The translations under genes and the position numbers were made by a program. Positions 26,092 to 57,607 of a DNA stretch of 64,000 bases are shown here, in pieces (the first letter of the stretch is position 1; the number at the start of each line of letters is the position of its first letter). The stretch spans positions 248,001-312,000 of the forward strand of contig JAIUME010000002.1 of assembly GCA_022565695.1 (NCBI GenBank), read 5' to 3'. Under the pieces are notes generated by a model. It was not told the DNA's origin. It made no database searches and worked only from the letters and a program-made list of their open reading frames with translations. This DNA comes from Alcanivorax sp. (GTDB lineage Bacteria > Pseudomonadota > Gammaproteobacteria > Pseudomonadales > Alcanivoracaceae).

Positions 26092-27503
<1,412 letters not shown>

Positions 27504-29122: not shown

Positions 29123-29341
29123 ATGGCGAAAGAAGAGCAAATCGAACTTGAAGGCGTAGTGGTAGATACCCTGCCTAACACCATGTTTCGCGTTAAACTG
29201 GATAACGGGCACGAGATCATCGCCCATATCTCCGGCAAGATGCGCAAACACTATATCCGTATTCTGACCGGTGACCGGGTCAAGGTGGAAATGTCCCCTT
29301 ACGACCTGAGCAAAGGCCGGATCACCTTCCGTATGAAATAA
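29123..29341 (+). CDS. infA: Translation initiation factor IF-1
   Basis: A 72-residue single OB-fold S1-type protein, full length for the family ([19 protein letters not shown], then [19 protein letters not shown]). It binds the ribosomal A site during initiation. It closes the trxB-aat-bpt cluster. Confidence 0.98.
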
Positions 29342-29490
29342 CCTCCCGTATTAAATAATGTCGCCGGGGGCACTTCAGATCCTGCAAGATTAGCCCCGGC
29401 AAGACATACCTGATTGATTTTCCTGGATTCCGGCCCTGAGCGGCGGCGCGCAGAGGTGGTTGATACACCACCCCCGCGGCACCCCTGACG

Positions 29491-42358: not shown

Positions 42359-44752
42359 ATGCGCCATTGCAAAACCGGTTTGCCCCGACTGGGCACGCTG
42401 TGTCTGACCCTCATACTGATCGCCTGCCACCCTGCCCCCGACACTCCCGCCTTCAGCGACCAGTATCTGCTGGTCCAGACCGTGTCGTTGCCCGGTGGGG
42501 CCGGTGAGCTCACCTCCGAGGCCATCCTGCAGGCAGATTACTTCACCCGCCGAAGTGGCAAACGTGACCGCCTGCATGTCACACCGAAATGGTTCAGCAT
42601 CGACCCGCCCTACGGCCGTCGTATGGATACTGCGGCGCCAGCGGACTACATGCTGGATGACGAGATGTTCGTCACGCTGCTGGACTGGATGTTCGCCGGC
42701 ACGACCCTGCACCTTGATGCAGAAGGCGGCATTGAACAGATCGAGCCGGGCGATGAAGCCGCCCACGCACAAATCATGGCACGCATGCCCGACAACCTTG
42801 GCGCGCTCTATGAGCAGGCGCCCATGTTGATGCGCCTGCCCGACGACATCACTCGCGGGCAATACTGGGAAGAGACCCGGAACATGGGCGACGGCAGCCC
42901 GCTGACCCTGACCATCACGGTGCTGGATTTCGATGATGACGAGGTGCTGCTGGCACTGGATGCCGGCGACCCGAGCGCCGCCCTGGCCAGCGACACGCCG
43001 CAGCTGCCACTGGCCCAGGGACGCATGATACTGCGCCGTGACGGCGACTGGCCGGTGGAGCTGCGCCTGCATATGTATCTGGCGCCGGAGCATGCCGGTG
43101 ACGGCGATAAGGGCGCCACCGAAGAGCCGGTCAGCTATAGCATTCGTCTCGCCAGCACGACCTTCAGCCGTTTCGGCTTCCATGACCGGGATGCCATTCC
43201 CGAGCCGGACTGGGCACGCCAGCGACTGGAGACGCCGAGTTATCACCTGCCCAGCGAGCACGAACTGGGCTGGGTGCAAGGCGTCATAGCGACCGACCCC
43301 GACGCGCTTCAGGCATTGAAGAAAAGCACCTACTGGATCAGGGATGGCGATGACATCCGCCTGCACAGCGACCCTATGGCGTTGTTCGGTTATCACCTGC
43401 CGATGGTGACCCTGCGCGCGGCCCGATTGCTGGATCAGGACGGCACACCGTTGCCGATCGACACCCTGACCAACCGACGCTTCGAGCAGCATTTCTACAG
43501 CAACGACATCTGGCTGCGGGGTCATAGTGCGCCGCTGATCGTGCCTGATCCCCGCACCCGGCCCGATCTTGCCAGCACCCTCGGCCGCATCGAGCTGGAT
43601 CTGGATATTGCCGTCATGCACCCCAGACCCGTGGCCCATCTCGATCATGGCGCCAATGCCGACAGCGTGCCCGGGCTGGCAGAGGTGCACTGGCATGATC
43701 AAGGCGTCGACCTGGCCATCCGGGGCCACCATACTCTGATCGCGGTGCCTCTGGACCAGGACGGTAACGTCATCCCCTTCGACGCTGTCTATCTGCCGGA
43801 CTGGATGCTGGCGCAACTGGACCCGTCACAGCAGGACGGCGTGTTTGACCCTGATGTCGCAGCGCTGACACTGGAGAACGCGCGCCACGAGGTGCGTGTG
43901 CGCACTGAAACACCCCCTGCACAGATTGCGATATACCTCGGCGAGGCAGAGATGCAGCGCCATACACTGGTCTACCACGACGGCAATGATCCGGACCCGG
44001 ACACCGCCGACATACGCCGCTACCACAGGCCTGCTGCCGCCTTTGCCCCGGAATCCCTGCCGCCGCCGGAAGACGGACTGGATATGGCAGCCAGGGTCGC
44101 CGCTCTGGCGCCGACCTGTACGGAGTGCGACGCCTTTCACCTGCGCTGGCCCGAGGATACGCCCGTGGCCGTCGCGCGCATGTGCGAGCTGCGCCCGGAT
44201 GAAGACGCCCGTTACTACGGCAACCCCCTGTCGGGGTATCTCGGCTCCACGCGGGGATTCAGCGGCGACGGCTCCCCGGTGACCGAGTTACGCACCGCCG
44301 ATGAGGTGATGCGTCATTTCCATGATCTGGCGGTGAACGTGACACTGCGCTGCCCGGCGCATGTCACCTACGTGACCGAAGCCGTCGAAGACAGCCAATG
44401 CGTCACGGCTGTCGGTCGCAGCAGCCTGCAAATAACGGATACGCAGGCCGAAATGAATGCATGCGCGGCGCTTCATGCCGCCCTTGATGCCGGTACGCAT
44501 GGCAGCGATGTCCTGTCATACGAAGGGCTGGCATATGAAGGACTGGAAGCACTGGATGATCTCGGCTTTCCGCTGGCCGCCATGGCGCCACAGGATGGAG
44601 ACACCACGCTGCGCTTCCACGGGCCGATAAGCCACGTACGCTACCCGCTTGCCGAAGGCGAAGTCGTCCGTCAATGGTCCCTGCAGTTCCCGCCCCTCCC
44701 AATCGCGCCCCTTCCCATCCCGCCCCTCCCCACGGCACAGGAGCAACAGTGA
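42359..44752 (+). CDS. Large uncharacterised lipoprotein
   Basis: A 797-residue protein with a lipoprotein signal peptide ending in LILIAC, so probably membrane-anchored and facing the periplasm or outer membrane. I recognise no family. It is acidic with many Asp-Gly pairs and looks beta-rich. The C-terminal third has several cysteines, including the close pair in TCTEC. The protein ends in a proline-rich tail of three five-residue repeats (PPLPI, APLPI, PPLPT). A GGAG site precedes the ATG at 42359. Its stop shares a base with the next gene (TGATG), so the two products are probably made together. Confidence 0.8.
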   Translation: MRHCKTGLPRLGTLCLTLILIACHPAPDTPAFSDQYLLVQTVSLPGGAGELTSEAILQADYFTRRSGKRDRLHVTPKWFSIDPPYGRRMDTAAPADYMLDDEMFVTLLDWMFAGTTLHLDAEGGIEQIEPGDEAAHAQIMARMPDNLGALYEQAPMLMRLPDDITRGQYWEETRNMGDGSPLTLTITVLDFDDDEVLLALDAGDPSAALASDTPQLPLAQGRMILRRDGDWPVELRLHMYLAPEHAGDGDKGATEEPVSYSIRLASTTFSRFGFHDRDAIPEPDWARQRLETPSYHLPSEHELGWVQGVIATDPDALQALKKSTYWIRDGDDIRLHSDPMALFGYHLPMVTLRAARLLDQDGTPLPIDTLTNRRFEQHFYSNDIWLRGHSAPLIVPDPRTRPDLASTLGRIELDLDIAVMHPRPVAHLDHGANADSVPGLAEVHWHDQGVDLAIRGHHTLIAVPLDQDGNVIPFDAVYLPDWMLAQLDPSQQDGVFDPDVAALTLENARHEVRVRTETPPAQIAIYLGEAEMQRHTLVYHDGNDPDPDTADIRRYHRPAAAFAPESLPPPEDGLDMAARVAALAPTCTECDAFHLRWPEDTPVAVARMCELRPDEDARYYGNPLSGYLGSTRGFSGDGSPVTELRTADEVMRHFHDLAVNVTLRCPAHVTYVTEAVEDSQCVTAVGRSSLQITDTQAEMNACAALHAALDAGTHGSDVLSYEGLAYEGLEALDDLGFPLAAMAPQDGDTTLRFHGPISHVRYPLAEGEVVRQWSLQFPPLPIAPLPIPPLPTAQEQQ
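44689..44733 (+). repeat. Three tandem 15-bp units in the lipoprotein tail
   Basis: Units at 44689-44703, 44704-44718 and 44719-44733 share the pattern CCCGCCCCTCCCAAT with few differences and encode PPLPI, APLPI and PPLPT just before the stop. Confidence 0.8.
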
Positions 44753-46128
44753 TGCACCCCACAGGATTACTCATAGTCTTGTCGCTGCTCTGGTACCCGA
44801 TCAACACCGTGGCCAACGACAACGCGGATCCAGAGCATCCGCGCAACGGCTCTCATTCAGAAGACGCCGTTGACGACACCCATGAAGTCCGGGATGACCA
44901 GGGGCGCCTGCAGCGACGTTACACCCGTCGGAACGGCAGGCTCCATGGCGCCGACGAGCATTTCCATGAAGGCGTGCTGGTGCGCCGTCAGTACTACAAA
45001 GATGGCCAGCGGCACGGGCTGTTTGAAAGCTTTCACAATGACGGCACACCCCGGGATCGCTATACCCTGGTAAACGGTCAGCGCCGGGGAAAAAGCCAAA
45101 GCTGGCATCCCAATGGCGAGCTGCGCGTGCAGCAGTGGGTGAATGACGATGGCGAAACGGTACGCCAGGATTTCTTTCGCAACGACGGTTCCCCCGAACG
45201 TGCCATGCGCATCAAGAGCTTCGAGGATGGCAGTGCACTGCATGTCTCGCGCCGCTTCTCCGATCAGGGCGAGCCCGTTTATATCGAGGCAGAACACAAG
45301 CAGGCAGAGGGGCAGACACTCGCCTCTGTGCGCTGGCAGCGCCGTAACGATGGCGAAGTGCATACGCGCGTACAACTGTTGACGCCACACCTGGATATTG
45401 ATGCATTGCGCATCACCTTGAACCGTCAGAGCGACGGCAGCCTGGCAGACTACCTGCGTGAGATACAGCCTGCCGCAAGCAGGCGATGGCTTCGCGATGG
45501 CCCGCAACGGGAAACCACCTTCCAGGGGTGGGTGAGCGAGACGCATTACGTCAACGGCGCACTACACGGCCCCTCTATTCTGCAGGACAACAATGGCGTC
45601 GTGATCAGCCAGGGCGAGCATATCGACGATCGACAACATGGAAAGTGGCTGGAGCGCGATCATCCGGATGGCTGGATCACGCGCATGACGTATCAGCACG
45701 GCAAGCGCCACGGCGCCTATCGCATCGAAGCAGAACGGGACGACGGTACGTTGCAGGTGCGGGAAACCGGGCACTACGAAGACGGTCTGCTGCATGGCAG
45801 GCTGCAGCGCTTTGACGAGGATGGCGAGCTGATCGGTGACATGAGCTACCAGAAGGACAGACTGCACGGCACCGTGCTCGATACTGATCGCGACGGCGAC
45901 AGATACCATGCCGAATACGTGGCAGGCGAGCCACATGGGCCCTACCGTCGCGTTCAGCCCGCCGGCTATCCGCTGGAAATCGGCCAGTACCGTAATGGTT
46001 TGAAAGAAGGACGGTTCTATCGTTTCACCCGCGATGGCGGATTACTTTCCGTGATCGACTATGAGGGAGATCAGCGTATCAATACGGACTATCCCGAAAG
46101 AAGCCATTCAGAAAGAAGCTATCCCTGA
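44752..46128 (+). CDS. Secreted MORN-repeat (YwqK-like) protein
   Basis: A 458-residue protein with a Sec signal (hydrophobic GLLIVLSLLWYPINTVA). It has many copies of the MORN_2-type repeat with G-x-x-HG turns (GRLHG, GQRHG, GKRHG, GLLHG, DRLHG). Such repeats form elongated beta hairpin sheets. Annotation pipelines often call them YwqK antitoxins, but here the protein is exported, so an envelope role alongside the preceding lipoprotein is more likely. The start ATG shares a base with the previous stop. The 3' end carries a degenerate 15-bp tandem repeat. Confidence 0.8.
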   Translation: MHPTGLLIVLSLLWYPINTVANDNADPEHPRNGSHSEDAVDDTHEVRDDQGRLQRRYTRRNGRLHGADEHFHEGVLVRRQYYKDGQRHGLFESFHNDGTPRDRYTLVNGQRRGKSQSWHPNGELRVQQWVNDDGETVRQDFFRNDGSPERAMRIKSFEDGSALHVSRRFSDQGEPVYIEAEHKQAEGQTLASVRWQRRNDGEVHTRVQLLTPHLDIDALRITLNRQSDGSLADYLREIQPAASRRWLRDGPQRETTFQGWVSETHYVNGALHGPSILQDNNGVVISQGEHIDDRQHGKWLERDHPDGWITRMTYQHGKRHGAYRIEAERDDGTLQVRETGHYEDGLLHGRLQRFDEDGELIGDMSYQKDRLHGTVLDTDRDGDRYHAEYVAGEPHGPYRRVQPAGYPLEIGQYRNGLKEGRFYRFTRDGGLLSVIDYEGDQRINTDYPERSHSERSYP

Positions 46129-46135
46129 ACAGCCC
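46091..46135 (+). repeat. 15-bp tandem repeat across the MORN gene stop
   Basis: Units ATCCCGAAAGAAGCC (46091-46105) and ATTCAGAAAGAAGCT (46106-46120) are followed by a more diverged third (46121-46135) that contains the TGA stop. Confidence 0.65.
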
Positions 46136-46213
46136 CCATCCGGCTTGCGCCAATTGCAACCGGCCGGAGGGCGTTCCTCCGCCGGTTGCAGTATCTCTGT
46201 CAGAACAGCCGAT

Positions 46214-47320
46214 TCAGCCGCCGAGAATATTGCAAGGCAAGGCAAAATCATCCAGCTGCGCGCGTGTATAGCTGGTGGCGTTCCCGCCCATGGTCACCGT
46301 AATGTCGCCGCCACCGGTAAAGTCCACCTGAATGCTGTCATTGATGAAGACACGCCCACTCTGCACTGTGTCAGTGTAGGTGAGCGTGCCATCCCCTGCC
46401 TCGGTGACCGACTCGATAATACGCAGGGTATCGTCGGTCCGGTAATGCGCGCTGCCGAGATTGCAGGCTGCCGTGCTGAAGCCGAACTCACCCTCGAACT
46501 CCAGATCAATCACGAGATCGTCTGTCAGGCTGTCGCGTGCCTCGATGATTGTTTCCTTGCCGATGTAGGGGTTGTCCACGTCCGCACCCAGCTTGATGCG
46601 CACTTCGCCGTTGCCGTCATCAAACCGCGCCTCTACAAAAGACTGGAATTCTGATACGCCGCTGCCCGCACATTCCTCACACATATACTGCACGCCGAGC
46701 ATTTCCGAGAAAAACCGGAATTGATCCGTTTCCAGTTCCGAGGTCACCGGGACACCGGTGTCCATATCCCCCATGAAGACATACAGGGCTTCGCCTGGGC
46801 CACCATAATCGAGGGCCTCCCCCCCTTCGAATCTGCCGTTGCTGAAACTGTTGCTGAAGAAGGGGCCTGCCTCGAAAGTCTGCCGGCAATTGTCCGCATC
46901 CGTAATCACGACATCATAGTCGCCGTCATGATAAGGCGTATCCACACTGCTGATCCGCTCCTCGAATGTCAGCGTGCCACCGCCGTTGCACACAATAACT
47001 TCCGGCGGATCACCGCCAAGGCGCGGGGCGGGCTGATCCTGGACGCCAGCCAGGCTAGCAGAAAGCAATTCCGGCTCGTGCTCGTCTTCCGCCTCGAAAT
47101 TGTTGGCGACGCTCATCAGGCTGACATGGCGCGCGACGTCCTCAGGGCTGTTCAGCGTGGCATCGGTGATGGGGGGTGCAGGTTGCGAGCCGCCGCCGCT
47201 GGAACTGGAACTGCCGCCGCAAGCACTCAGTGCTGCCGCCAGGAGAGCCGCGCCCAGATAGCCCATTCGTTGCGAATGTGGCGCCGCCAGAGTGTGAGTG
47301 TCATTTCCCGGTTGTGACAT
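46214..47320 (-). CDS. Uncharacterised Ser/Gly-linker lipoprotein
   Basis: A 368-residue protein with a lipobox ALSAC at about residue 34, followed by a flexible Gly/Ser stretch (GGSSSSSGGGSQ), typical of surface lipoproteins. The rest is acidic and rich in beta strands, with a CEEC pair. No family is recognised. The start at 47320 has a strong AAGGAAGGG site; an internal ATG at 47266 would shorten the signal peptide but has a poor ribosome site. Confidence 0.75.
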   Translation of the reverse strand: MSQPGNDTHTLAAPHSQRMGYLGAALLAAALSACGGSSSSSGGGSQPAPPITDATLNSPEDVARHVSLMSVANNFEAEDEHEPELLSASLAGVQDQPAPRLGGDPPEVIVCNGGGTLTFEERISSVDTPYHDGDYDVVITDADNCRQTFEAGPFFSNSFSNGRFEGGEALDYGGPGEALYVFMGDMDTGVPVTSELETDQFRFFSEMLGVQYMCEECAGSGVSEFQSFVEARFDDGNGEVRIKLGADVDNPYIGKETIIEARDSLTDDLVIDLEFEGEFGFSTAACNLGSAHYRTDDTLRIIESVTEAGDGTLTYTDTVQSGRVFINDSIQVDFTGGGDITVTMGGNATSYTRAQLDDFALPCNILGG

Positions 47321-47411
47321 GGTCGCCCTTCCTTTGTTTGCTGGTCAGTGACGCCAGCCTAGAAGAGAGACGGGGTGAGCCACCATGCCCCGGACGGGCT
47401 AGCCCACCTGG

Positions 47412-47453
47412 CTAACTCAGGACAACTTGCTCAGGGCAACTTGCTCAGGGCAA
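47412..47453 (-). repeat. Three tandem 14-bp units across a stop codon
   Basis: On the plus strand, units at 47426-47439 and 47440-47453 are identical (CTTGCTCAGGGCAA), and 47412-47425 matches at 11 of 14 positions. The TGA stop of the methyltransferase gene lies in the unit at 47440-47453. Confidence 0.85.
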
Positions 47454-48128
47454 ATGAGCACACAAGCGCCATAGCGCATGCCCGCTGTCGCGGTATTTCA
47501 GTTCAAAATCGGTGATGGCTTCAATGGCATCGGCGGGCAGCGCGTCCAGCGTTGCCGGCACTGATGCCTGTGCCAGAGCGGCCTGCATTTCCTGCAGATA
47601 AATCGGCCAGTTACTGCGCACCTCCAATGTGCCACCAAGGTTCAGCAGGGATGGAAACACCGGATGCCCATGCCAGCGGCGCTTGAGATGGGCCGCCTTC
47701 GGCCAGGGATTGGGATACAGCAGATAGTGGGCAGCAAGGCGCCAGCCCGCCTCCTCCGCCAGACGCCAGAAATCAGCGCACTCGGCCCGTAGCAACAGCA
47801 GATTGGACGGCAGTGGCCCTGCTTCGCGCCCGCGCGCAAGCCGGTGTGCGGACTGATCCAGCGCGATGACCAGGGCATCCGGATGCTGCGCCGCCAGCCA
47901 GCGCGAGGAGCGCGCCGTACCGCAGCCGGAGTCCAGGATCAGCGGCACGTCACCGCCCTCTCTTTTACCCTGTGCGGCCCGCCAGGCGGCCGCTTCAGCG
48001 AAGGCATTCCGGGTGTGCTCCGCCACCGGCGCTTGCCAGGCACGGGTCAGATGGCGCTGTACCGTCCTGGTCAGATCCTGGTGGATACCAGGCTGATTGC
48101 TGATCACCGGTTTGCTGTTGCCGAACAT
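47445..48128 (-). CDS. TrmB-like SAM-dependent methyltransferase
   Basis: A 227-residue Rossmann methyltransferase. The SAM motif is LILDSGCGTARSSRWLA, and a TrmB-type signature YLLYPNPWPKAAHLKRRWHG is clear, so it belongs to the tRNA (guanine-N7) methyltransferase family. The N terminus differs from standard TrmB, so it may be a paralogue with another substrate. It is divergent from the secretin-domain gene (46 nt apart). Its 3' end is triplicated. Confidence 0.82.
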   Translation of the reverse strand: MFGNSKPVISNQPGIHQDLTRTVQRHLTRAWQAPVAEHTRNAFAEAAAWRAAQGKREGGDVPLILDSGCGTARSSRWLAAQHPDALVIALDQSAHRLARGREAGPLPSNLLLLRAECADFWRLAEEAGWRLAAHYLLYPNPWPKAAHLKRRWHGHPVFPSLLNLGGTLEVRSNWPIYLQEMQAALAQASVPATLDALPADAIEAITDFELKYRDSGHALWRLCAHLP

Positions 48129-48174
48129 GGGTTACCCTTATCCTCTATCGGGCAGGCATGATAACGGAGAAACC

Positions 48175-48972
48175 ATGAACAGGCGTCATCTGAACAGGCT
48201 TCTGGCAGCACTGCTGACCACTGTTGCGCTGCTACACACACCGCTGACCGTCCATGCTGCCCGAGCGGTGGCTGACGACAGAATGGAAACGCATATTGTC
48301 GACACACTCGGTGGCAAGGCCCTGATCCCGGTCATCCAGCCCCTGTTGGCGCCCGGCGGCAGCATCGGCCACTACCAGGGCCGTCTGGTGATCCGCACCA
48401 CGGCAGAGAGTTTCGATGAGATCACTCGCCTGATTGCTGATATCGACCGCGCACCACGCGGCCTGCGGATCAGCTTCCGCCGCAGCGCCAGTGGCACCAG
48501 CCAGCAAGACGGCGCTTCCGCCCGCGGTTCGGTGGATCAGGATGGCAGAGTGCGAGGCAATGTGGTGATTCAGCGGGATCGCCAGCAGCAACAGCGTAGC
48601 GACGACTACACCATCAGCACGCTGGACGGGCATGATGCGTTCATTGATCGGGGCAATCTGCTGCAACTGTCGGGGCACCACCCCGGCGACAGGACGGTGT
48701 TGCCGCTGCTGCAAGGCATCGCCGTGACACCGCAACTGTTACCCGGCGGTCAGATCAGACTGACCGTAGAGCAACGCTTTGATGAGCGCGGCCAGGCCGG
48801 TGACCTACGCACCCAGTCGGCGCAAAGCACGCTGCAGCTGTCTCCCGGCCAATGGCAGGATATGGGCGGGCTGACACAACAGAGCGAGGACGGCCACCGT
48901 GGCCTGAGCGGCGGTGAACGCCGCTCAGGCCAGGAAGCCATCACCCTGCAGGTCCGGGTGGACCTGCTTTAA
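48175..48972 (+). CDS. Small periplasmic protein with secretin N-domain-like region
   Basis: A 265-residue protein with a Sec signal (LLAALLTTVALLHTPLTVHAA). Residues about 45-100 resemble the N1/N0 ring domains of secretins (LAPGGSIGHYQGRLVIRTTA and LIADIDRAPRGL). Later segments (VTPQLLPGGQIRLTVEQRF, LQLSPGQWQDMGGL) resemble the edge of the secretin domain, but no full pore domain is present. No pilus or secretion genes are nearby, so the partner is unknown. A good GGAGA site precedes the ATG at 48175. Its stop falls inside a tandem repeat. Confidence 0.72.
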   Translation: MNRRHLNRLLAALLTTVALLHTPLTVHAARAVADDRMETHIVDTLGGKALIPVIQPLLAPGGSIGHYQGRLVIRTTAESFDEITRLIADIDRAPRGLRISFRRSASGTSQQDGASARGSVDQDGRVRGNVVIQRDRQQQQRSDDYTISTLDGHDAFIDRGNLLQLSGHHPGDRTVLPLLQGIAVTPQLLPGGQIRLTVEQRFDERGQAGDLRTQSAQSTLQLSPGQWQDMGGLTQQSEDGHRGLSGGERRSGQEAITLQVRVDLL

Positions 48973-49020
48973 CAGCCGTACTTATATTAACAACCGTACC
49001 TAATTAACAACCGTACCTGG
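48969..49020. repeat. Three tandem 16-18 bp units joining two convergent stops
   Basis: Units TTAACAGCCGTACTTA (48969-48984), TTAACAACCGTACCTAA (48987-49003) and TTAACAACCGTACCTGG (49004-49020) fill the whole space between the two genes. The last includes the glcB stop and final codons; the first includes the stop of the secretin-domain gene. Confidence 0.9.
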
Positions 49021-51175
49021 CCTTCGCTTCCAGACGACGACGGTGCAGAACCGGCTCGGTGTAGCCGCTGGGCTGCTCGCGGCCCTTGAACACCAGTTCA
49101 CAGGCGGCTTCAAAGGCCACATTGCCTTCGAAGTCCGGCGCCATCTTCCGATAAGCCGGGTCCGCAGCGTTCTGCTCGTCCACCACTGCCGCCATGCGCT
49201 GCATCGCTTCCATCACCTGCTCCCCGGTGCAGACACCGTGGTGCAGCCAGTTGGCAATGTGCTGGCTGGAAATGCGCAGCGTTGCGCGATCTTCCATCAG
49301 GCCGACGTTGTTGATGTCCGGCACCTTCGAGCAACCGACGCCCTGGTCGATCCAGCGCACCACGTAACCGAGGATGCCCTGGCAATTGTTGTCCAGTTCC
49401 TGCTTGATCTCCTCGGCAGACCAGTTGGTCTCCGGTGCCAGCGGCACGGTCAGGATATCATCCAGGCTGGCACGGGCGCGGCGCGTGAGCTGCTCCTGAA
49501 TGTCCGCCACCTTGACCTGATGGTAATGGGTCACGTGCAAGGTCGCCGCAGTCGGAGACGGTACCCAGGCACAGCTGGCGCCGGCTTTCGGGTGGCCGAT
49601 CTTGGCCTCCATCATGGCCTTCATCTCGTCCGGCATGGCCCACATGCCTTTGCCGATCTGGGCGCGGCCCTTGAGCCCGGTATCCAGGCCGATGTCCACG
49701 TTCCAGTCTTCGTAGGCGTTGATCCAGGGCTGCTGCTTCATGCCGCCCTTGCGCACCATGGCGCCGGCTTCCATGGAGGTATGGATTTCGTCGCCGGTGC
49801 GGTCCAGGAAGCCGGTGTTGATGAAGATCACCCGCTCCTTCGCGGCACGGATACAGGCCTTCAGGTTCACGGTCGTACGGCGCTCTTCGTCCATGATGCC
49901 GATTTTCAGCGTGTTGCGTGCCAGGCCGAGTGCGTCTTCCACGCGACCGAACAGCTCCACCGCAAAGGCCACTTCTTCAGGGCCATGCATCTTCGGCTTC
50001 ACGATATAGACAGAGCCAGTACGGCTGTTGCGCGCACCCTCGGTCTTCTTCAGGTCGTGCATGGCCGCCAGGACCGTCACCATGCCGTCGAGGATACCTT
50101 CGGGTACCTCTTCGCCATTGAACAGCACCGCATTGTTGGTCATCAGGTGACCGACATTGCGCACCAGCAACAGGGAGCGTCCAGGCAGGACCAGCTTGCC
50201 GCCATCCGGGGCCGTGTATTCGCGATCCGCGTTCAGTTTGCGGGTCAGTGTCTTGCCGCCTTTCTGGAAGGATTCCTGCAGGTCACCCTTCATCAGGCCC
50301 AGCCAGTTGCGGTAGACCACGGTCTTGTCGTCGGCATCAACTGCCGCCACGGAGTCTTCGCAATCCTGGATCGCGGTAATCGCGGATTCCAGCAACAGAT
50401 CCTTGATGTGGGCCTTGTCTTCGGCACCGATCGGATGATTGGCGTCGAACTGGATTTCCACATGCAGGTCGTTGCGACGCACCAGAATACCGGTGGGGCT
50501 GGCAGCATCGCCCACATAGCCGACCAGTTGTGCCGGATCCTGAAGGCCGGTTTCGCCGTTTTCGGTGCGCACCACCAGCGTGCCATCGACAATGGCGTAG
50601 CCCGTGGCAGCCTTGTGCGAGCCCTGGGCCAGCGGCGCAGACTGATCGAGGAAGTTACGCGCCCACTCGATCACCTTTGCGCCGCGCTTGGGGTTATAGG
50701 CACCACCACGCTCGGCACCGTCCTCTTCCGAGATCACGTCGCCGCCATACAGTGCGTCGTACAGGCTGCCCCACCGGGCATTCGCTGCATTCAGGGAGAA
50801 ACGCGCATTCATGACCGGCACCACAAGCTGCGGACCGGCAATCCGGGCCACTTCGGCATCCACGTTTTCCGTCGTGATCTGGAAATCCTCGCCTTCCGGC
50901 AACAGATAGCCGATCTCGGTCAGGAAGGCCTTGTATTCGGCCATGTCGATCTTCTGGCCCTTGCGCGCCTGATGCCACGCATCAATGCGCGTCTGCAGCT
51001 CATCACGCTTGGCCAGCAGTGCCTTGTTCTTCGGTACCAGGTCGGTCAGGATTTTCTCCAGCTCGGCCCAGAAATGCGCGGTGTCCACACCGGTACCCGG
51101 CGCAATCTCTTTTTCAACGAGATTGTAGAGAACGGGGGCGATCTCGAGAGCGCCCTGGCGAATGCGATCGGTCAT
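49004..51175 (-). CDS. glcB: Malate synthase G
   Basis: A 723-residue monomeric malate synthase, the same length as the E. coli enzyme. It condenses glyoxylate with acetyl-CoA. Signature segments are [37 protein letters not shown] and [17 protein letters not shown] chose the ATG at 51175 (MTDRIRQG) rather than the upstream in-frame start. The last codons RYGC-stop are part of a tandem repeat. No isocitrate lyase is in the window. Confidence 0.97.
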
Positions 51176-51321
51176 AGTGCTGCTACCCTTTCGGTCAAGA
51201 AGCAAGGTACATGTGCCGGCTGTGGGTGCTGATTCAGCTGTCCGGCACGCGGAAAGCGGCGATTTTAACGGAAACCCGGGCGCAATTCATGCGCCGGATG
51301 ACGGCCAACGCCATGACTCGG

Positions 51322-51357
51322 CAGTCAGTTGAGCAGTCAGCTGGTCAGTTAGTTGAA
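51322..51357. repeat. Three tandem 12-bp units downstream of ttcA
   Basis: Units CAGTCAGTTGAG (51322-51333), CAGTCAGCTGGT (51334-51345) and CAGTTAGTTGAA (51346-51357), in the spacer between glcB and the ttcA stop. Confidence 0.75.
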
Positions 51358-51402
51358 TAACCCGCTGACATGCCCGTCAGTGCTCGATCAATCTGGATGG
51401 GG

Positions 51403-52314
<912 letters not shown>

Positions 52315-53106
52315 TCAGGTTACCTTTATACGACGGATGACTTTGCGATACAGGGACGGAAACAGGCGTTTGAGCCAGATCCCGGCCACTTCGCGGCCGC
52401 CAATGATAACCTGCTCGCGGCCGCGCTGCACGGCGCGGAGTATGCGCCCGGCACACACATCCACATCCAGCCCGGCGGCCTGGTGGTCATCCATCACGCC
52501 ATGGGCCGAGCCATCCGCCGTGATCGCATTGATGGAGACATTGGTGCGGATAAAGCCCGGCATGACCATCAGAATATGGATGTTCTGGTCGTACTCTTCC
52601 GCGCGCAGCGCCTCGAACCAGCCATGCAGGGCATGCTTGCTGGCGCAATAGGCAGAGCGCATCGGCGTCGGCAACTCGCCAACGAGGCTGGAAATCACCA
52701 TGATCTGGCCACCACCGGCGCTGCGCATGGCCGGCAACACGGCCTTGGTCAGGCCGATGGCGCCAAAGTAGTTCACTTCCATGACCCGGCGATCGACCGC
52801 CAGATCCGTATCAATCACCTTCGAGCGCTGGCTGATACCGCCATTGTTGACCAGCATGTCGATGCGCTGGCAACTGGCCAGCACCTGCTCCACGGCGGCG
52901 GCAAAGCTGTCGCTGTCGGTCAGGTCCAGGGGCAGCACCAGGTGTCGCTCGGGATGTTCCAGGCTGGCACGCACCCGCTCAAGCTCATCCTCCCGGCGCG
53001 CCGAAAGCACCAGGCGCGCCCCCTGGCGACTCATGGCCCGCGCCAGCGCTTCACCGATGCCGCTGGATGCCCCGGTAATCCAGATAACCTTGTTGGTCAA
53101 TGCCAT
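52315..53106 (-). CDS. Short-chain dehydrogenase/reductase
   Basis: A 263-residue classical SDR. The cofactor motif is TGASSGIGEALARA, the structural NNGG is LVNNGGISQ, and the catalytic Ser and Y-x3-K are ISSLVGELP and YCASK. The C terminus is basic and hydrophobic (LFPSLYRKVIRRIKVT), suggesting membrane association, as in lipid-active SDRs. The ATG at 53106 has a GAGGAG site. The substrate is not predictable. Confidence 0.9.
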   Translation of the reverse strand: MALTNKVIWITGASSGIGEALARAMSRQGARLVLSARREDELERVRASLEHPERHLVLPLDLTDSDSFAAAVEQVLASCQRIDMLVNNGGISQRSKVIDTDLAVDRRVMEVNYFGAIGLTKAVLPAMRSAGGGQIMVISSLVGELPTPMRSAYCASKHALHGWFEALRAEEYDQNIHILMVMPGFIRTNVSINAITADGSAHGVMDDHQAAGLDVDVCAGRILRAVQRGREQVIIGGREVAGIWLKRLFPSLYRKVIRRIKVT

Positions 53107-53192
53107 GCCCGCCTCCTCAGATAGAAACAAGCAGCAACCATAGGCAATCCGGCGCGGATACACCAGAGGCCACAGGCCTGGCAATGCCCTCC

Positions 53193-54395
53193 TTACTTCA
53201 GCTCCCGCGAGGACAGACCGAGCAGGTTACGGGCGACAATCAGCTGCTGGATCTGCTGAGTCCCTTCGAAGATATCGATGATCTTGGAGTCGCGGGCCAG
53301 CTTCTCCAGCAGGAAGCGCTCGGAATAGCCAAGTTCGCCACACAGCTCAACGCACTTCAGCGTCACCTGATTGCCCATGCGCCCGGCCTTGGCCTTGCAC
53401 ATGGAGGCGTCCTTTGAGTTGGGCAGGCCGTTATCGGCCATCCAGGCCGCCTTGTAGGTCATCAGGCGCGCCGCATCCAGGTCTGCTTCCATGCGATACA
53501 GCTCCGCCTCAATGGCACTGCTGTTATAAAGTGATTTCGAGTAATCAGCCTTAACTCCTTCTTTTTCAAGAAGTTCACGGGTGATTTCAAGTGCCGCGCG
53601 CGCTACGCCAAGGGCCATGGCCGCCACTTGCGGACGGGTATTGTCGAAGGTCTGCATGACGCCACCGAAGGCCTTCTTGCGCGCCTCCTCAGTGTCTGCC
53701 ACCTCGGCGGAACCGAGGATATTGCCCTTGGGAATACGGCACTCATCGAAGGACAACGCCGCCGTATCGGAAATCCGCAGACCCATCTTGTCTTCCACCC
53801 GCACCAGCGACATGCCGGGCGCGCCCTGGGGCACGATGAAGGACTTGATGGCAGCCTTGCCCTTGCTCTTGTCGAGTGTCGCCCAGACCACGATGGCATC
53901 GCAGCGCTGGCCCGCCGTGCAGTAGATCTTCTCGCCGTTGAGCACCCACTCATCACCTTCCAGCCGTGCGGTGGTGGAGACTGCCGCCGAATCAGAACCG
54001 GCGCCGGGCTCGGTGATCGCCATGGCGCAGTACAGCTTGCCGAACTCTTCTTTCTGCTCCGGTGTGCCCACCGCCATGATCGCGGCATTGCCGAGACCGG
54101 AACCGGGGATCGACAGCAGCAGCCCCACGTCCCCCCAGCACAGCTCTTCCGCCCCGACGATGCCGGACAGATTGGCGCCATTGACGGTGCTGCCGTCGTC
54201 TGGCCGGGCTTCTTTCTTCGCCCGGCTCGGGCGCATGGCCGCCATCATCTGGGCGATCGGTTTGAGTTCTTCCGGCGTGTCGCAGTGCTCGATCAGATCA
54301 TATTTGCGGGAAATGGGGCGGAAGACACCACTGGCCACCTGGTGGCTCATCTTCTGCACAGTCAGCAGTTTTTGCGGCAATTCGAGATTGATCAT
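53193..54395 (-). CDS. Acyl-CoA dehydrogenase family protein, catalytic-type
   Basis: A 400-residue flavoprotein. The FAD region AITEPGAGSDSAAVST and the C-terminal catalytic motif IIDIFEGTQQIQQL (Glu of EGT) are present. It probably acts in beta-oxidation or a related degradation. The ATG at 54395 (MINLELPQKLL) is preferred over the longer frame. It follows a second dehydrogenase gene by 70 nt. Confidence 0.92.
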   Translation of the reverse strand: MINLELPQKLLTVQKMSHQVASGVFRPISRKYDLIEHCDTPEELKPIAQMMAAMRPSRAKKEARPDDGSTVNGANLSGIVGAEELCWGDVGLLLSIPGSGLGNAAIMAVGTPEQKEEFGKLYCAMAITEPGAGSDSAAVSTTARLEGDEWVLNGEKIYCTAGQRCDAIVVWATLDKSKGKAAIKSFIVPQGAPGMSLVRVEDKMGLRISDTAALSFDECRIPKGNILGSAEVADTEEARKKAFGGVMQTFDNTRPQVAAMALGVARAALEITRELLEKEGVKADYSKSLYNSSAIEAELYRMEADLDAARLMTYKAAWMADNGLPNSKDASMCKAKAGRMGNQVTLKCVELCGELGYSERFLLEKLARDSKIIDIFEGTQQIQQLIVARNLLGLSSRELK

Positions 54396-54465
54396 GACGC
54401 GTCTCTTTAATGTCAGTAGGTATAGGTCAGCAGGCATCAACAGGAACCGACGGGAACGAGTCGGT

Positions 54466-55572
54466 TCACACCAGTGCTGCACCGTCCAGCACACCAATGG
54501 CACGCAGGTTGCGGTACCACATTTCCAGCGGGTAATCGCGGACGAAGCCGGCGCCACCGAACAGTTGCACACCGTTGGTACCGATCTGCATGGCTTTCTC
54601 GGCGGCGTACACGCGGGCCAGGTGCGCCTCGCGGTGGAATGGCAGCCCCTGCTCGGCGCGGCTGGCAGCACGCAGGACCAGCAGGCGCATGCCCTCCAGC
54701 TCGATGGCGATATCCGCCACCATGAAGGCCACAGACTGGCGCCACGCGATCGGCTCGCCGAATGCCTTGCGCTCCTTCACGTAGGGAATGCAGTAATCCA
54801 GCACCGCCTGGCAACAGCCCACGGCCAGCGCGGCCGTCCCGATGCGCCCGAGATCCACAAGGCGCTCGAGATCAAACTGCATCAGCCGGTGCGCGGCACC
54901 GACCCGGACCTGGTTCAGCGTGAGCGTGGCAACTTCCACCGCACGCAGCCCCATGTAGGATTCAGCTTTCGCGCTCAGCCCCTCGCTACCGGCCGGCACG
55001 ACAAAGGCTGCGGGGCCCTCGCCATCAAGCTCGGCCACAACAAGTATCAGTTCGGCGCTGGCGCCGAGGATCACCATGGATTTCTCGCCGGTGATCAGGT
55101 AGCCATCGCCATCACGCACGGCGCGCGTGTGAAGATTGCCCGGATCGAAGGTTGCGCGGGGCTCCATCAGGGCCACCGTCGCGGGGACAAAGTGCTCCTG
55201 AGCCAGTTGCGGCAGGAACAGCTCCTGTTGCGCCTCGTCTCCAAAATCCAGCAGTGCATTGATGAACGACAAGGGTGCCAGTGTGCCCAGCGCCAGGGAG
55301 ATGTCGCCGTGGCCCAGGTCCTCGGCATTGAGCACATTGCTCACCGGCGAGCGCGGCATGCCAGCACCGCCGAACGCTTCCGGTATCGGCATCAATGACA
55401 GGCCCAGTTCCATGGTGCCCGCGTAGAAGCCTTCCGGCGCTGCCCCGGCCTCGTCCGCACTCCGGGCGATGGCGCGCAGTTGCCGCTCGGCATAGCGACG
55501 CATGCTCTCGCGGCCGATGCGTTGCTCCTCCGACAAAGACAGATCAAATGGCAGATCCTGACTGGTGACCAC
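54466..55572 (-). CDS. Acyl-CoA dehydrogenase family protein lacking the EGT glutamate
   Basis: A 368-residue member of the same family. The start is likely GTG at 55572 with AGGAG upstream. The FAD-binding segment is replaced by a divergent LMEPRATFDPGNL. The C terminus ends abruptly at IGVLDGAALV, so the usual catalytic E of the EGT motif is an Asp and the final helix is missing. This resembles partner subunits of heteromeric acyl-CoA dehydrogenases. It is probably cotranscribed with the next gene. Confidence 0.88.
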   Translation of the reverse strand: MVTSQDLPFDLSLSEEQRIGRESMRRYAERQLRAIARSADEAGAAPEGFYAGTMELGLSLMPIPEAFGGAGMPRSPVSNVLNAEDLGHGDISLALGTLAPLSFINALLDFGDEAQQELFLPQLAQEHFVPATVALMEPRATFDPGNLHTRAVRDGDGYLITGEKSMVILGASAELILVVAELDGEGPAAFVVPAGSEGLSAKAESYMGLRAVEVATLTLNQVRVGAAHRLMQFDLERLVDLGRIGTAALAVGCCQAVLDYCIPYVKERKAFGEPIAWRQSVAFMVADIAIELEGMRLLVLRAASRAEQGLPFHREAHLARVYAAEKAMQIGTNGVQLFGGAGFVRDYPLEMWYRNLRAIGVLDGAALV

Positions 55573-55820
55573 TTCACATACTCCTGTGGCTGAGAGTTGT
55601 ATGCCTGATTGGCCCAGGGCCAATTAAACGCTCGTTTGAATTGAGGCCAATCCTGACACAGCCCCGGAAACGCGGCAAGCCGTTCGTCGGTCGCTCACGG
55701 CCCACCGCCGCCGGGTGAACTGGCGCTATCGCCGCATTTCCGGACCTGTGTCATGATATCAATGTGATATCGGGCAGATTGCGGCGGCAGTCGGGCCACT
55801 GTCAGGGGGAAGTCAGGACG

Positions 55821-56945
55821 TTGAGCGTTCCACAGGATTATCGCCGCAGTCTCCGGCTGCGCCGCCAGAGAATGGCCATTTACTCCTACCTGCTGGTGTG
55901 GGGCGGCGTTCTGTTGGGTATGCAGATCGGTTACTTCGAACCGAACACCCCGCACTGGTGGCTTTTTGGCGGCACCCTGGGCCTCAATCTGCTGGTGTTT
56001 TTTCTGATCCGTCGTGGCTATTCCGTGCGCTGGCGTGACCCCAGCCTGACCGTGCCACAGATGATTATCGGCATCCTGCTGATTACCCTGCTACTGCATT
56101 ATTCACGCGAAATGCGCGGCGCCATGCTGTCGATCTATTTCATGGTCATGACCTTCGGCGTGTTCGCCCTGCCCCGCCGACGCATGATGATGATGGCGCT
56201 GTTCGTACTGGCCAGTTTCATCACCCTGGAGATCGTCGAATATCTGGACGCCCCCCAGTCCAGGATCGTATCCCTGAGCGTTGGCCACCTGAGCATTCTG
56301 ACCATGGGCCTGGCCTGGTTTGTCTACGTGGGCGGTCATATCCACAACCTGCAGCAACGCAATCGGGATCAGCGCACCTCTCTCCAGGCGCAGCAACGAC
56401 ATCTGGAGCAGATCAATCATCAGCTTCAGGATGCCATGACACGGCTGGAGGAAGTGGCGATCCGCGACAGCCTCACCGGCCTGTTCAATCGACGGCATTT
56501 CATGGAGCGTATCGAAGAAGAGATGGCGCGTGCAGAACGTCAGGGAAACCCGCTGCATCTGGCCCTGATCGATCTGGATCATTTCAAGAAGATCAATGAC
56601 ACCTGGGGGCATCAGGCCGGTGATCAGGTATTGGTCCGCTTTGCCGAAACGGCCCGCAGTGCGCTGCGTCGCTCGGATCTGATTGCCCGGTATGGCGGCG
56701 AAGAGTTCGTCATCCTGCTGACCGCCGGTGACACCGCGGACATTCGTCAAGTCCTGGAGCGGCTGCGCAGTATGCTGTCAAGTCTTCACTTTGGCGGCAA
56801 GCAAGGCTTCAGCGTGACACTCTCTGCCGGCCTTGCCTCCTGGCGGCCAGGCGACACTGTTGATTCCCTGTTCCGGCGTGCAGACGTGGCGCTTTACCGC
56901 GCCAAGGAGACCGGTCGCAACCGGCTGGTCGAGGCAGAAGCCTAG
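55821..56945 (+). CDS. Membrane-bound diguanylate cyclase (GGDEF)
   Basis: About 374 residues with six predicted membrane helices, a coiled-coil (LQAQQRHLEQINHQLQDAM) and a C-terminal GGDEF domain. The active site is RYGGEEF, and the product-inhibition site RxxD is intact nine residues before it (RRSDLIARYGGEEF). It should make cyclic di-GMP. The start is uncertain: TTG at 55821 follows an AGGGGGA element, while GTG at 55764 would add 19 residues. Confidence 0.9.
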   Translation: MSVPQDYRRSLRLRRQRMAIYSYLLVWGGVLLGMQIGYFEPNTPHWWLFGGTLGLNLLVFFLIRRGYSVRWRDPSLTVPQMIIGILLITLLLHYSREMRGAMLSIYFMVMTFGVFALPRRRMMMMALFVLASFITLEIVEYLDAPQSRIVSLSVGHLSILTMGLAWFVYVGGHIHNLQQRNRDQRTSLQAQQRHLEQINHQLQDAMTRLEEVAIRDSLTGLFNRRHFMERIEEEMARAERQGNPLHLALIDLDHFKKINDTWGHQAGDQVLVRFAETARSALRRSDLIARYGGEEFVILLTAGDTADIRQVLERLRSMLSSLHFGGKQGFSVTLSAGLASWRPGDTVDSLFRRADVALYRAKETGRNRLVEAEA

Positions 56946-56989
56946 TACCCCGACAGCATGCTAGACTCGCGGCTTTACTAGCCGCCAGA

Positions 56990-57026
56990 TCACTTTTACT
57001 GGTCACTTCACAGGTCACTGCCATGG
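56990..57026 (+). repeat. Three imperfect 12-13 bp units before the UPF0149 start
   Basis: TCACTTTTACTGG, TCACTTCACAGG and TCACTGCCATGG follow one another, the last containing the start codon at 57023. Confidence 0.55.
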
Positions 57027-57607
57027 AACATCTCGAGAACCCCGGTCTGCGGGACAAGATTGACGCCTTCATCCGGCAAGCCGGTGATGACGCGCTTACC
57101 TGGACCGAAATCCATGGCCTGATGTGTGCCGTCTCCGCCGGCCCCGCAGCCCCCGAGGACTGGCCACAGATTTGCCACGCCGAAGAGAATGCGGTGCCGG
57201 CGGAGGTTGCCACCGCATTGCGGCAATTGCAGCAACGCCTGGCCGCCCAACTGGGTGTCGGGGAGAAGTTGCAACTGCCCTGCCTGCTGGACCCTTACGC
57301 CGAGGATGAAGGGGAAGACCTGCCCAGCTGGTGCGCTGGCTTCATGGCCGGGGTGCTCCTGCAGGAGGAACGCTGGTCAGAAGCGGACGAGGAGCGCATG
57401 GCCAACATGCTGCTGCCCTTCCTGCTGATCAGCGGCATGGACGAGGACCCGGAACTGGACCGCCTCTGGGAGGACACCCGCCTGGTGCGCACCATGGCCA
57501 TGGCCATCCCGGAGCTGCTGGAAGAGCTGTTTCTCTACTTCCATGCCCCGGAGGCGCCCACAGGCGGCGATGACGATGCGTCGGGGACGTCCGGGGAGGA
57601 CGACTGA
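57023..57607 (+). CDS. UPF0149 (YecA/YgfB-like) family protein
   Basis: A 194-residue acidic helical protein. Conserved parts include TEIHGLMCAVSAGP and WCAGFMAGVLLQEERW. The function of this family is poorly known. The C-terminal tail is Asp/Gly-rich. The gene ends immediately before the convergent AI-2E gene. Confidence 0.88.
   Translation: MEHLENPGLRDKIDAFIRQAGDDALTWTEIHGLMCAVSAGPAAPEDWPQICHAEENAVPAEVATALRQLQQRLAAQLGVGEKLQLPCLLDPYAEDEGEDLPSWCAGFMAGVLLQEERWSEADEERMANMLLPFLLISGMDEDPELDRLWEDTRLVRTMAMAIPELLEELFLYFHAPEAPTGGDDDASGTSGEDD

What the first reader, a model, noticed from the sequence alone, without database searches (positions are those of the whole stretch)
44689..57026. Recurring short tandem triplications at gene boundaries
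At least seven arrays of about three 12-18 bp units occur in 12.4 kb: 44689-44733, 46091-46135, 47412-47453, 48969-49020, 51322-51357, 52251-52295 and 56990-57026. Three overlap stop codons and two lie at N termini or start codons. Units differ in sequence, so this looks like a process (replication slippage or repair) acting preferentially at gene ends, not one dispersed repeat.
Basis: seen in the sequence. Interest (0 to 1): 0.62.

Follow-up and report, generated by a model that had tools for sequence, protein, structure and literature searches.

The report
Short tandem duplications at gene ends
This marine bacterium's DNA carries many head-to-tail duplications of about 12-13 letters that survive mainly between genes and just past stop codons, which points to a size-limited mutation process filtered by selection rather than to a functional repeat.

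Summary
In sampled intergenic DNA of this genome (G000) and its closest held relative (G003), exact head-to-tail duplications of 9 bp or more number 41 against 0.9 expected by shuffling, 41 per 100 kb; all other sampled genomes together have 17 in 199 kb, 8.5 per 100 kb. Units form a band at 10-17 bp, mode 12-13. Enrichment within 20 nt after stop codons was confirmed in 400 kb not used to find it. Of 88 syntenic intergenic regions, 10 carry an array in one species, 15 in the other, none in both.

Border microhomology is 0-2 bp in 33 of 49 exact cases, so slippage between pre-existing repeats is not the general explanation, though it may make some. Gene-end placement looks like survival: the 20 nt after stops are the least conserved, and in-frame 12-bp duplications also lie inside genes (12 versus 0.6 expected).

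Best reading: a process that makes about 12-bp tandem duplications everywhere, raised in this lineage but not unique to it, with purifying selection leaving them at gene ends. The enzymology is inferred. Ku is absent.

The parts
44688..44732 (+). 15-bp unit x3, in frame, coding for a Pro/Leu-rich repeat in the last ~20 codons of the ORF ending at 44752
   Evidence: TRF score 69; read. No TRF array >=30 in the corresponding part of the G003 stretch examined
46091..46135 (+). degenerate 15-bp unit, about 2-3 copies, covering the last codons and the stop (46126-46128) of ORF 44752-46128
   Evidence: by eye; not reported by TRF >=30. G003 has a different 17-bp x2.2 duplication at the stop of the orthologue
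47412..47453 (-). 14-bp unit x2.7 containing the stop codon (47445-47447) of ORF 47445-48128(-), running downstream
   Evidence: TRF score 69; G003 orthologue has no array
48969..49020 (.). 17-18-bp unit x2.8 spanning two convergent stop codons (ORF ending 48972(+) and malate synthase G, 49004-51205(-))
   Evidence: TRF score 79; absent at this stop in G001, G002, G003, G004 and G006; an 18-bp x2.2 duplication sits at the same stop in G005
51321..51357 (.). 12-bp unit x3, intergenic, about 46 nt downstream of the stop of ORF 51403-52314(-)
   Evidence: TRF score 44; G003 carries the unit once where the window carries three copies
52251..52296 (-). 15-bp unit x2.2-2.5, in frame, adding His-Glu-Val-Glu repeats to the N-terminus of ORF 51403-52314(-) (resembles a tRNA 2-thiolation enzyme; name recalled, not searched)
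   Evidence: TRF scores 53 and 59; G003 orthologue lacks it
56986..57026 (+). 12-13-bp unit x2.7 ending at the start codon (57023) of ORF 57023-57607
   Evidence: TRF score 40; by eye absent in the six relatives aligned
29324..29358 (+). 17-bp unit x2.1 straddling a stop codon (reading frame ending at 29341); same class, not in the finding
   Evidence: TRF score 56; stop-straddling
26366..26388 (.). exact 11-bp tandem duplication in non-coding DNA; same class, not in the finding
49004..51205 (-). malate synthase G (glcB), reference gene for locating relatives
   Evidence: E. coli matches annotated glcB; found in 7 of 7 genomes of the genus, own included

Best explanation
These are footprints of a genome-wide mutational process that copies a stretch of about 12-13 bp (range 10-17) directly next to itself, usually with little or no repeated sequence at its borders. 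Once two copies exist, a third can be added by ordinary slippage. Events fall everywhere. Inside genes nearly all are removed by selection and mainly in-frame 12-bp ones survive. Between genes they persist, most of all when the unit begins before or at a stop codon, because the first copy keeps the stop, the protein is unchanged, and the DNA just after a stop is the least constrained. The process is stronger in this lineage than in the other genomes sampled but not unique to it. Shown: reality, size band, adjacency of copies, low microhomology in two thirds of exact cases, lineage-specific arrays, enrichment after stops, in-frame survivors in genes, low conservation after stops. Inferred: that selection causes the placement, and the enzymology, for which I favour two nicks about 12 nt apart on opposite strands (a staggered break) that are filled in and rejoined, giving an exact duplication of the overhang. 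My own odds: process plus selection about 0.75; staggered-break enzymology about 0.25.
For: Exact duplications in intergenic regions <=400 bp: 41 versus 0.9 expected in 833 regions (99,413 bp) of G000+G003, sizes 9:1 10:2 11:5 12:11 13:9 14:4 15:5 16:1 17:2 20:1, none at 21-60; 0 in 284 regions of G001+G004. All other genomes sampled: 17 in 199,376 bp against 41 in 99,133, p=8e-9. Overrun k of 49 exact non-coding duplications: 0:18, 1:9, 2:6, 3:2, 4:3, 5 or more: 11; chance fractions for k=0-4 are 0.544, 0.285, 0.112, 0.039, 0.013. Spacer between copies: 0 in 20 of 131 pairs, 1-7 in 27, more than 7 in 8, negative (overrun or further copies) in 76. Array midpoints 0-20 nt after stops: 43 in 14,046 bp versus 81 in 85,726 bp of other intergenic DNA, p=7e-9; in the held-out 400 kb 19 in 3,910 versus 35 in 24,676, p=5.5e-5. 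G000/G003 identity in 63 array-free regions is 0.55 at 0-20 nt after stops (unrelated-sequence baseline 0.40) versus 0.62-0.72 at 20-80 nt downstream and 0.75-0.82 upstream of starts. In 88 syntenic intergenic regions 10 arrays in G000, 15 in G003, 0 in both; about 1.7 shared would be expected if independent. One copy in G003 versus three in the window at 51321-51357. In gene interiors exact 12-bp duplications 12 versus 0.6 expected; none at periods 11, 13, 14.
Against: Conservation does not explain all the variation: over the 9 non-coding bins alone the rank correlation of density with identity is -0.43 (p=0.24), though -0.67 (p=0.006) over all 15 bins; regions 0-60 nt upstream of starts are well conserved yet hold 87-140 arrays per 100 kb. 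Of 49 exact non-coding duplications 16 have k>=3 (about 3 expected), and of 28 in called coding sequence 15 do, so slippage may make a good part. Lineage dependence is one of degree: G002 has 26, Psychrobacter 26, mixed loci 16 and G005 10 exact events per 100 kb, against 24, 28 and 81 in the three G000/G003 sets; over all uncalled DNA the contrast is smaller still, 51 in 212 kb versus 33 in 505 kb (summed). The staggered-break step has no direct support, and Ku is absent in 7 of 7 genomes, so blunt rejoining would need another route. Density differs about twofold between the C3/C4 and C1/C2 samples of G000, unexplained.
Confidence: 0.5

Rival explanations
1. Classical replication slippage: the nascent strand slips back between short direct repeats already present, duplicating the stretch between them.
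For: 16 of 49 exact non-coding duplications and 15 of 28 coding ones have k>=3. Arrays of 3 or more units fit slippage on an existing duplication. In penA mutants 3 of 11 de novo duplications were bounded by direct repeats of 3-8 bp (passages of PMC4169377).
Against: 33 of 49 non-coding cases have k of 0-2, 18 of them 0; 11 of the 16 with k>=3 have k>=5 and may simply hold part of a third copy (not checked one by one). Sizes are banded at 10-17 bp with little excess at 7-9 (12 vs 8.4, 4 vs 1.9, 1 vs 0.8), whereas slippage usually favours short units (general knowledge).
Confidence: 0.2
2. The process is aimed at gene 3' ends, for example naked mRNA after the stop, R-loops or RNA polymerase release producing breaks there.
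For: 3.2-fold excess at 0-20 nt after stops over other intergenic DNA, repeated in held-out data; convergent intergenic regions are densest, 7 arrays in 51 regions and 9 in 31, that is 215 and 450 per 100 kb versus 60-117 for the other types; the malate synthase stop carries a duplication in both G000 and G005 but not in their nearest relatives.
Against: That zone is the least conserved; arrays also lie upstream of starts and exact 12-bp ones inside genes. From 40 nt after stops onward the density is that of other intergenic DNA or lower, 8 in 15,458 bp, though the 60-80 nt bin alone is 134 per 100 kb.
Confidence: 0.15
3. Scars of mobile elements: a transposase makes a staggered cut, the element later leaves, and the target-site duplication remains as a tandem copy.
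For: Adjacent copies, no sequence in common and a narrow size range are what target-site duplications look like.
Against: Sizes vary over 10-17 bp while most insertion sequences have a fixed or shorter duplication (recalled); three-copy arrays need a second step. Resident elements were not searched for.
Confidence: 0.1
4. Mishandled excision repair: the 12-13-nt patch excised by UvrABC (size recalled) is resynthesised while the old patch is kept, duplicating the patch.
For: Mode of 12-13 bp; UvrD-type helicases present in 7 of 7 genomes.
Against: Rejoining the old patch is not templated (reasoning); none of the repair genes tested differs between genomes in a way that follows the arrays; UvrA, UvrB and UvrC were not searched.
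Confidence: 0.1
5. Selection for function, such as spare stop codons or regulatory repeats.
For: Many arrays copy the stop codon.
Against: 18 of 24 stop-straddling arrays listed have units that are not multiples of 3, so the copied stop is out of frame; units share no evident motif; no array is shared in 88 syntenic regions.
Confidence: 0.04

Closest known systems
De novo tandem repeats of Burkholderia penA (PMC4169377; passages seen)
   Same: Short tandem duplications arising in a bacterium, 8 of 11 without direct repeats bordering the duplicated stretch
   Different: Found under drug selection inside one gene; no genome-wide size band or orthologue comparison of this kind in the passages seen
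Small tandem duplications from filled-in staggered breaks in mammalian cells (PMC8355091; abstract and passages seen)
   Same: Homology-independent duplications whose size depends on the overhang
   Different: Depends on Ku80 end joining and CST/Pol alpha-primase; Ku is absent in 7 of 7 genomes here; induced overhangs there were 43 bp at the smallest
Over-representation of close direct repeats in prokaryotic intergenic DNA (PMC4060949; abstract and passages seen)
   Same: Close 10-mer repeats mostly over-represented between genes and weakly under-represented in genes
   Different: A compositional survey; in the passages seen there is no 12-13-bp tandem band, no link to stop codons and no orthologue comparison
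Variable-number and phase-variable tandem repeats of bacteria (recalled)
   Same: Head-to-tail copies near genes
   Different: Here units differ from site to site and copy numbers are mostly 2-3; switching was not tested

Membership tests
Classical slippage-generated tandem repeats | Direct repeats (about 3 bp or more) at the borders of the duplicated stretch | tested here: inconclusive
   not met in 33 of 49 exact non-coding cases (k 0-2); 16 of 49 have k>=3, of which 11 have k>=5 and may hold part of a third copy
Classical slippage-generated tandem repeats | Copy-number differences between relatives | tested here: met
   10 and 15 lineage-specific arrays in 88 syntenic regions, 0 shared
Fill-in-and-join tandem duplications | Adjacent copies without homology at the borders | tested here: met
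   for the majority: spacer peak at 0, k of 0-2 in 33 of 49
Fill-in-and-join tandem duplications | Ku-dependent end joining | tested here: not met
   PF02735: 0 of 7 genomes of the genus
Dispersed repeat or mobile-element family | Shared sequence among copies at different sites | tested here: not met
   units differ from array to array on inspection
Target-site duplications of transposons | Fixed duplication length and a resident element | tested here: inconclusive
   length varies over 10-17 bp; resident elements not searched for
Functional stop-codon backup | Second stop in frame with the first | tested here: not met
   18 of 24 stop-straddling units are not multiples of 3

The most novel reading that the evidence does not exclude
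Bacteria possess a duplication process with a fixed molecular ruler: some activity opens or cuts the two strands about 12-13 bp apart without sequence preference and leaves an exact tandem duplication after Ku-independent repair. It runs at a low level in many lineages (9 of the 17 exact events outside G000 and G003 are also 12 or 13 bp) and is turned up in this one, steadily lengthening gene ends and intergenic regions.
Probability: 0.25. Interest if true: 0.75.

Novelty: new variant of a known kind. Interest (0 to 1): 0.48.

Why it matters
Short insertions are a little-studied part of bacterial mutation spectra. A duplication process with a sharp size mode and little need for homology, about five times commoner here than in the pooled other genomes and without an exact event in the 32 kb sampled from two congeners, would give a natural comparison for finding the activity responsible. 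It would also help explain how gene tails and intergenic spacing diverge: 25 of the 88 syntenic intergenic regions compared carry an array in one species or the other.

Tried and rejected
Dispersed repeat family: rejected, units unrelated on inspection. Chance: rejected by dinucleotide and codon shuffles. In-frame spare stops: rejected, 18 of 24 units not multiples of 3. A special 12.4-kb cluster: rejected. A strictly lineage-specific process: I first leaned to this, which pooled 12 groups (1 exact event in 571 regions) and kept Psychrobacter apart (4 in 83); adding G002, G005, Psychrobacter and 50 mixed loci shows 17 events outside G000 and G003, so it is a matter of degree. Loss of a repair gene in the arrays' lineage: not found. 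SbcC has no match over the cut-off in 7 of 7 genomes, Ku no match in 7 of 7; UvrD-like helicases, Pol I, RecJ, ExoI and XseA matched in 7 of 7 (the best UvrD matches are 1,098-1,112 bits, below the curated cut-off of 1,144, and in G006 the match is split over two contigs). Y-family polymerases: a strong DinB-type match in all 7; within the genus the second, weak match (ImuB-like, name recalled) is missing at E<=0.001 in G000 and G005 only, which does not follow the arrays. Other repair genes were not searched. Replication gradient: no clear trend with GC skew by eye.

Limits: genes were called by my own codon-usage caller; on 50 kb of E. coli K-12 all 38 called stops were annotated ones and 10 of 48 annotated were missed, so 'intergenic' stretches contain some missed genes; start codons are approximate; the mixed loci were called from about 4-22 kb each and are the least reliable. 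Samples of other genomes are small (44-240 kb each). With up to 2 mismatches the pool of 12 groups also exceeds shuffles (82 vs 41; period 14: 10 vs 0.2) and G001+G004 slightly (24 vs 17), against 221 vs 47 in G000+G003. In one search one of the 22 listed pairs is a 25%-identity false orthologue; one search used stricter filters. In one search array densities were entered by hand.

Literature: searches listed no paper whose title or abstract start describes this size-limited process in bacteria; only listings were seen, apart from passages of PMC4169377, PMC4060949 and PMC8355091.
Full report
What the window is. It lies at C2:248001-312000 of a 3.53-Mb genome in 22 contigs. The malate synthase at 49004-51205(-) is 90% identical to that of an Alcanivorax sp. 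assembly, so this is taken as a member of Alcanivorax; seven genomes of the genus are held (G000-G006), G003 being closest (97% for malate synthase).

The observation. Six of the seven arrays are reported by TRF at score >=30 near the stated coordinates; the seventh, 46091-46135, is weaker and visible by eye only. The placements at stop and start codons are as described. The array at 48969-49020 spans two convergent stops.

Is it more than chance? Genes were called with a codon-usage script on 656,597 bases of G000, 460,000 of G003 and smaller samples of others. Intergenic regions of <=300 bp held 38 arrays (TRF >=40) in G000 against 1.6 in shuffles and 32 in G003 against 0.5; G004 had 3 against 1.0 (shuffle maximum 3) and G001 1 against 0.3. 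With 20 shuffles and more genomes: G003 137, G005 124 (9 arrays in 6 regions), Psychrobacter 124, G000 99, Pseudomonas 88 (2 arrays in 1 region), G021 79, G002 65, G019 48, G016 39, Alloalcanivorax 25, G004 22, G009 19, Nocardia 16, G001 9 per 100 kb, and 0 in G007, G029, E. coli, Marinobacter/Marinomonas and Shewanella. Loose arrays are therefore not confined to this lineage; samples outside G000 and G003 are small.

The sharper signature. Counting exact two-copy duplications in intergenic regions of <=400 bp, G000+G003 have 41 of period >=9 against 0.9 expected in 833 regions (99,413 bp); G001+G004 have 0 in 284 regions; a pool of 12 other groups 1 in 571 regions; Psychrobacter 4 in 83 regions. 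A recount by group, with 50 further mixed loci, gives 23.8 (G000, first sample), 80.7 (G000, second sample) and 28.0 (G003) per 100 kb; G002 26.2 (2 events), Psychrobacter 26.1 (4), mixed loci 16.0 (9), G019 12.1 (1), G005 9.8 (1), all others 0; in sum 41 in 99,133 bp against 17 in 199,376, p=8e-9. Over all DNA outside called genes the contrast is smaller: 51 in 212 kb for G000+G003, 33 in 505 kb for the rest (summed). Periods in G000+G003 form a band at 10-17 with mode 12-13 and none at 21-60; periods 7-9 are hardly above chance (12 vs 8.4, 4 vs 1.9, 1 vs 0.8); periods 5 and 6 show an excess (156 vs 121, 54 vs 29), a separate matter. Of the 17 events elsewhere 9 are also 12 or 13 bp, 4 are 9 bp.

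Borders. The spacer between copies peaks at 0 (20 of 131 pairs), is 1-7 in 27 and more than 7 in 8; the other 76 overrun. Of 49 exact non-coding duplications the overrun k was 0 in 18, 1 in 9, 2 in 6, 3 in 2, 4 in 3 and 5 or more in 11; chance fractions for k=0-4 are 0.544, 0.285, 0.112, 0.039, 0.013. So 33 of 49 look free of microhomology; 16 of 49 have k>=3, where about 3 are expected, and can be slippage products or hold part of a third copy. In called coding sequence 15 of 28 have k>=3.

Where they lie. Array midpoints 0-20 nt downstream of a stop: 43 in 14,046 bp (306 per 100 kb) versus 81 in 85,726 bp elsewhere between genes (94), odds ratio 3.2, p=7e-9. The part of G000 fetched after the pattern was seen gives 19 in 3,910 versus 35 in 24,676, p=5.5e-5 (the gene model was retrained on old and new parts together). 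Convergent intergenic regions are densest. A duplication that starts before or in the stop leaves the first copy, and so the protein, intact.

Hotspot or survival? In 63 array-free syntenic intergenic regions, G000/G003 identity is lowest just after stops (0.55; unrelated sequence gives 0.40) and is 0.62-0.72 at 20-80 nt downstream and 0.75-0.82 upstream of starts. In gene interiors exact 12-bp duplications number 12 against 0.6 expected in 1,155,963 bp of G000+G003, with none at the frame-breaking periods 11, 13 and 14 and one at period 10 (0.7 expected); a scan that included gene ends lists 2 of period 13 among 28 in called coding sequence. The same events thus occur in genes and nearly only in-frame ones remain. 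I conclude that selection shapes the placement, while noting that conservation does not account for the density upstream of starts and that a hotspot at stops is not excluded.

Age and independence. In 88 syntenic intergenic regions 10 carry an array in G000, 15 in G003, none in both; about 1.7 shared would be expected if independent, so the absence of sharing shows turnover and nothing more. At 51321-51357 G003 has the unit once and the window three times. At the stop of ORF 44752-46128, G003 has its own 17-bp duplication. At the malate synthase stop G000 and G005 carry 17-18-bp duplications while G001-G004 and G006 have none, apparently two events; none of 30 of the 80 loci that were printed showed one by eye.

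Mechanism. Slippage between pre-existing repeats predicts border repeats and a bias to short units; neither is seen for most events, though a part may arise so. The features fit a local duplication with a molecular ruler of about 12-13 bp: a staggered double nick filled in and rejoined is my favoured, inferred reading; target-site scars and an excision-repair patch are rivals. Repair-gene searches in 7 genomes found no difference that follows the arrays.

Relation to the literature. De novo duplications without bordering repeats are known in Burkholderia penA (PMC4169377), over-representation of close repeats between prokaryotic genes is known (PMC4060949), and fill-in of staggered breaks makes small tandem duplications in mammalian cells through Ku (PMC8355091). 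The combination seen here, a narrow size mode, little need for homology, strong difference in level between lineages and survival at stops, was not found in the listings. I file it as a new variant of a known kind of mutation.

Noticed in passing
48900-48932: A 33-bp stretch that matches its own opposite strand at 91% (near-palindrome) inside the 3' part of the ORF ending at 48972.
   Followed up: no
G000 contigs C3:1-200000 and C4:60001-260000 versus sampled parts of C1 and C2: Intergenic arrays are about twice as dense on the C3 and C4 samples as on the C1 and C2 samples, and exact duplications about three times; no clear relation to GC skew by eye.
   Followed up: partly
G003:C1 about 797443-797630 (segment position 457443 onward): A low-complexity tract of GGTGT/GCGGT type with a 114-base exact run at period 10.
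   Followed up: no
Alcanivorax genus, 7 genomes: No SbcC match over the family cut-off in any of the 7 genomes; only short partial matches.
   Followed up: no
L032, L034, L035, L041, L043, L046 (Psychrobacter): 13 intergenic arrays in 69 regions, mostly AT-rich units of 12-17 bp; of the 13 array midpoints lying nearer a stop than a start, 8 are 60 nt or more from it, a different placement. Four exact events have periods 10, 12, 13 and 17, inside the same size band.
   Followed up: partly
G021 (L215, L217) and G019 (L206): Similar 14-bp units of the TCAACTGTCCACTA type recur at several intergenic sites in two genera of the family, which looks like a dispersed repeat.
   Followed up: no
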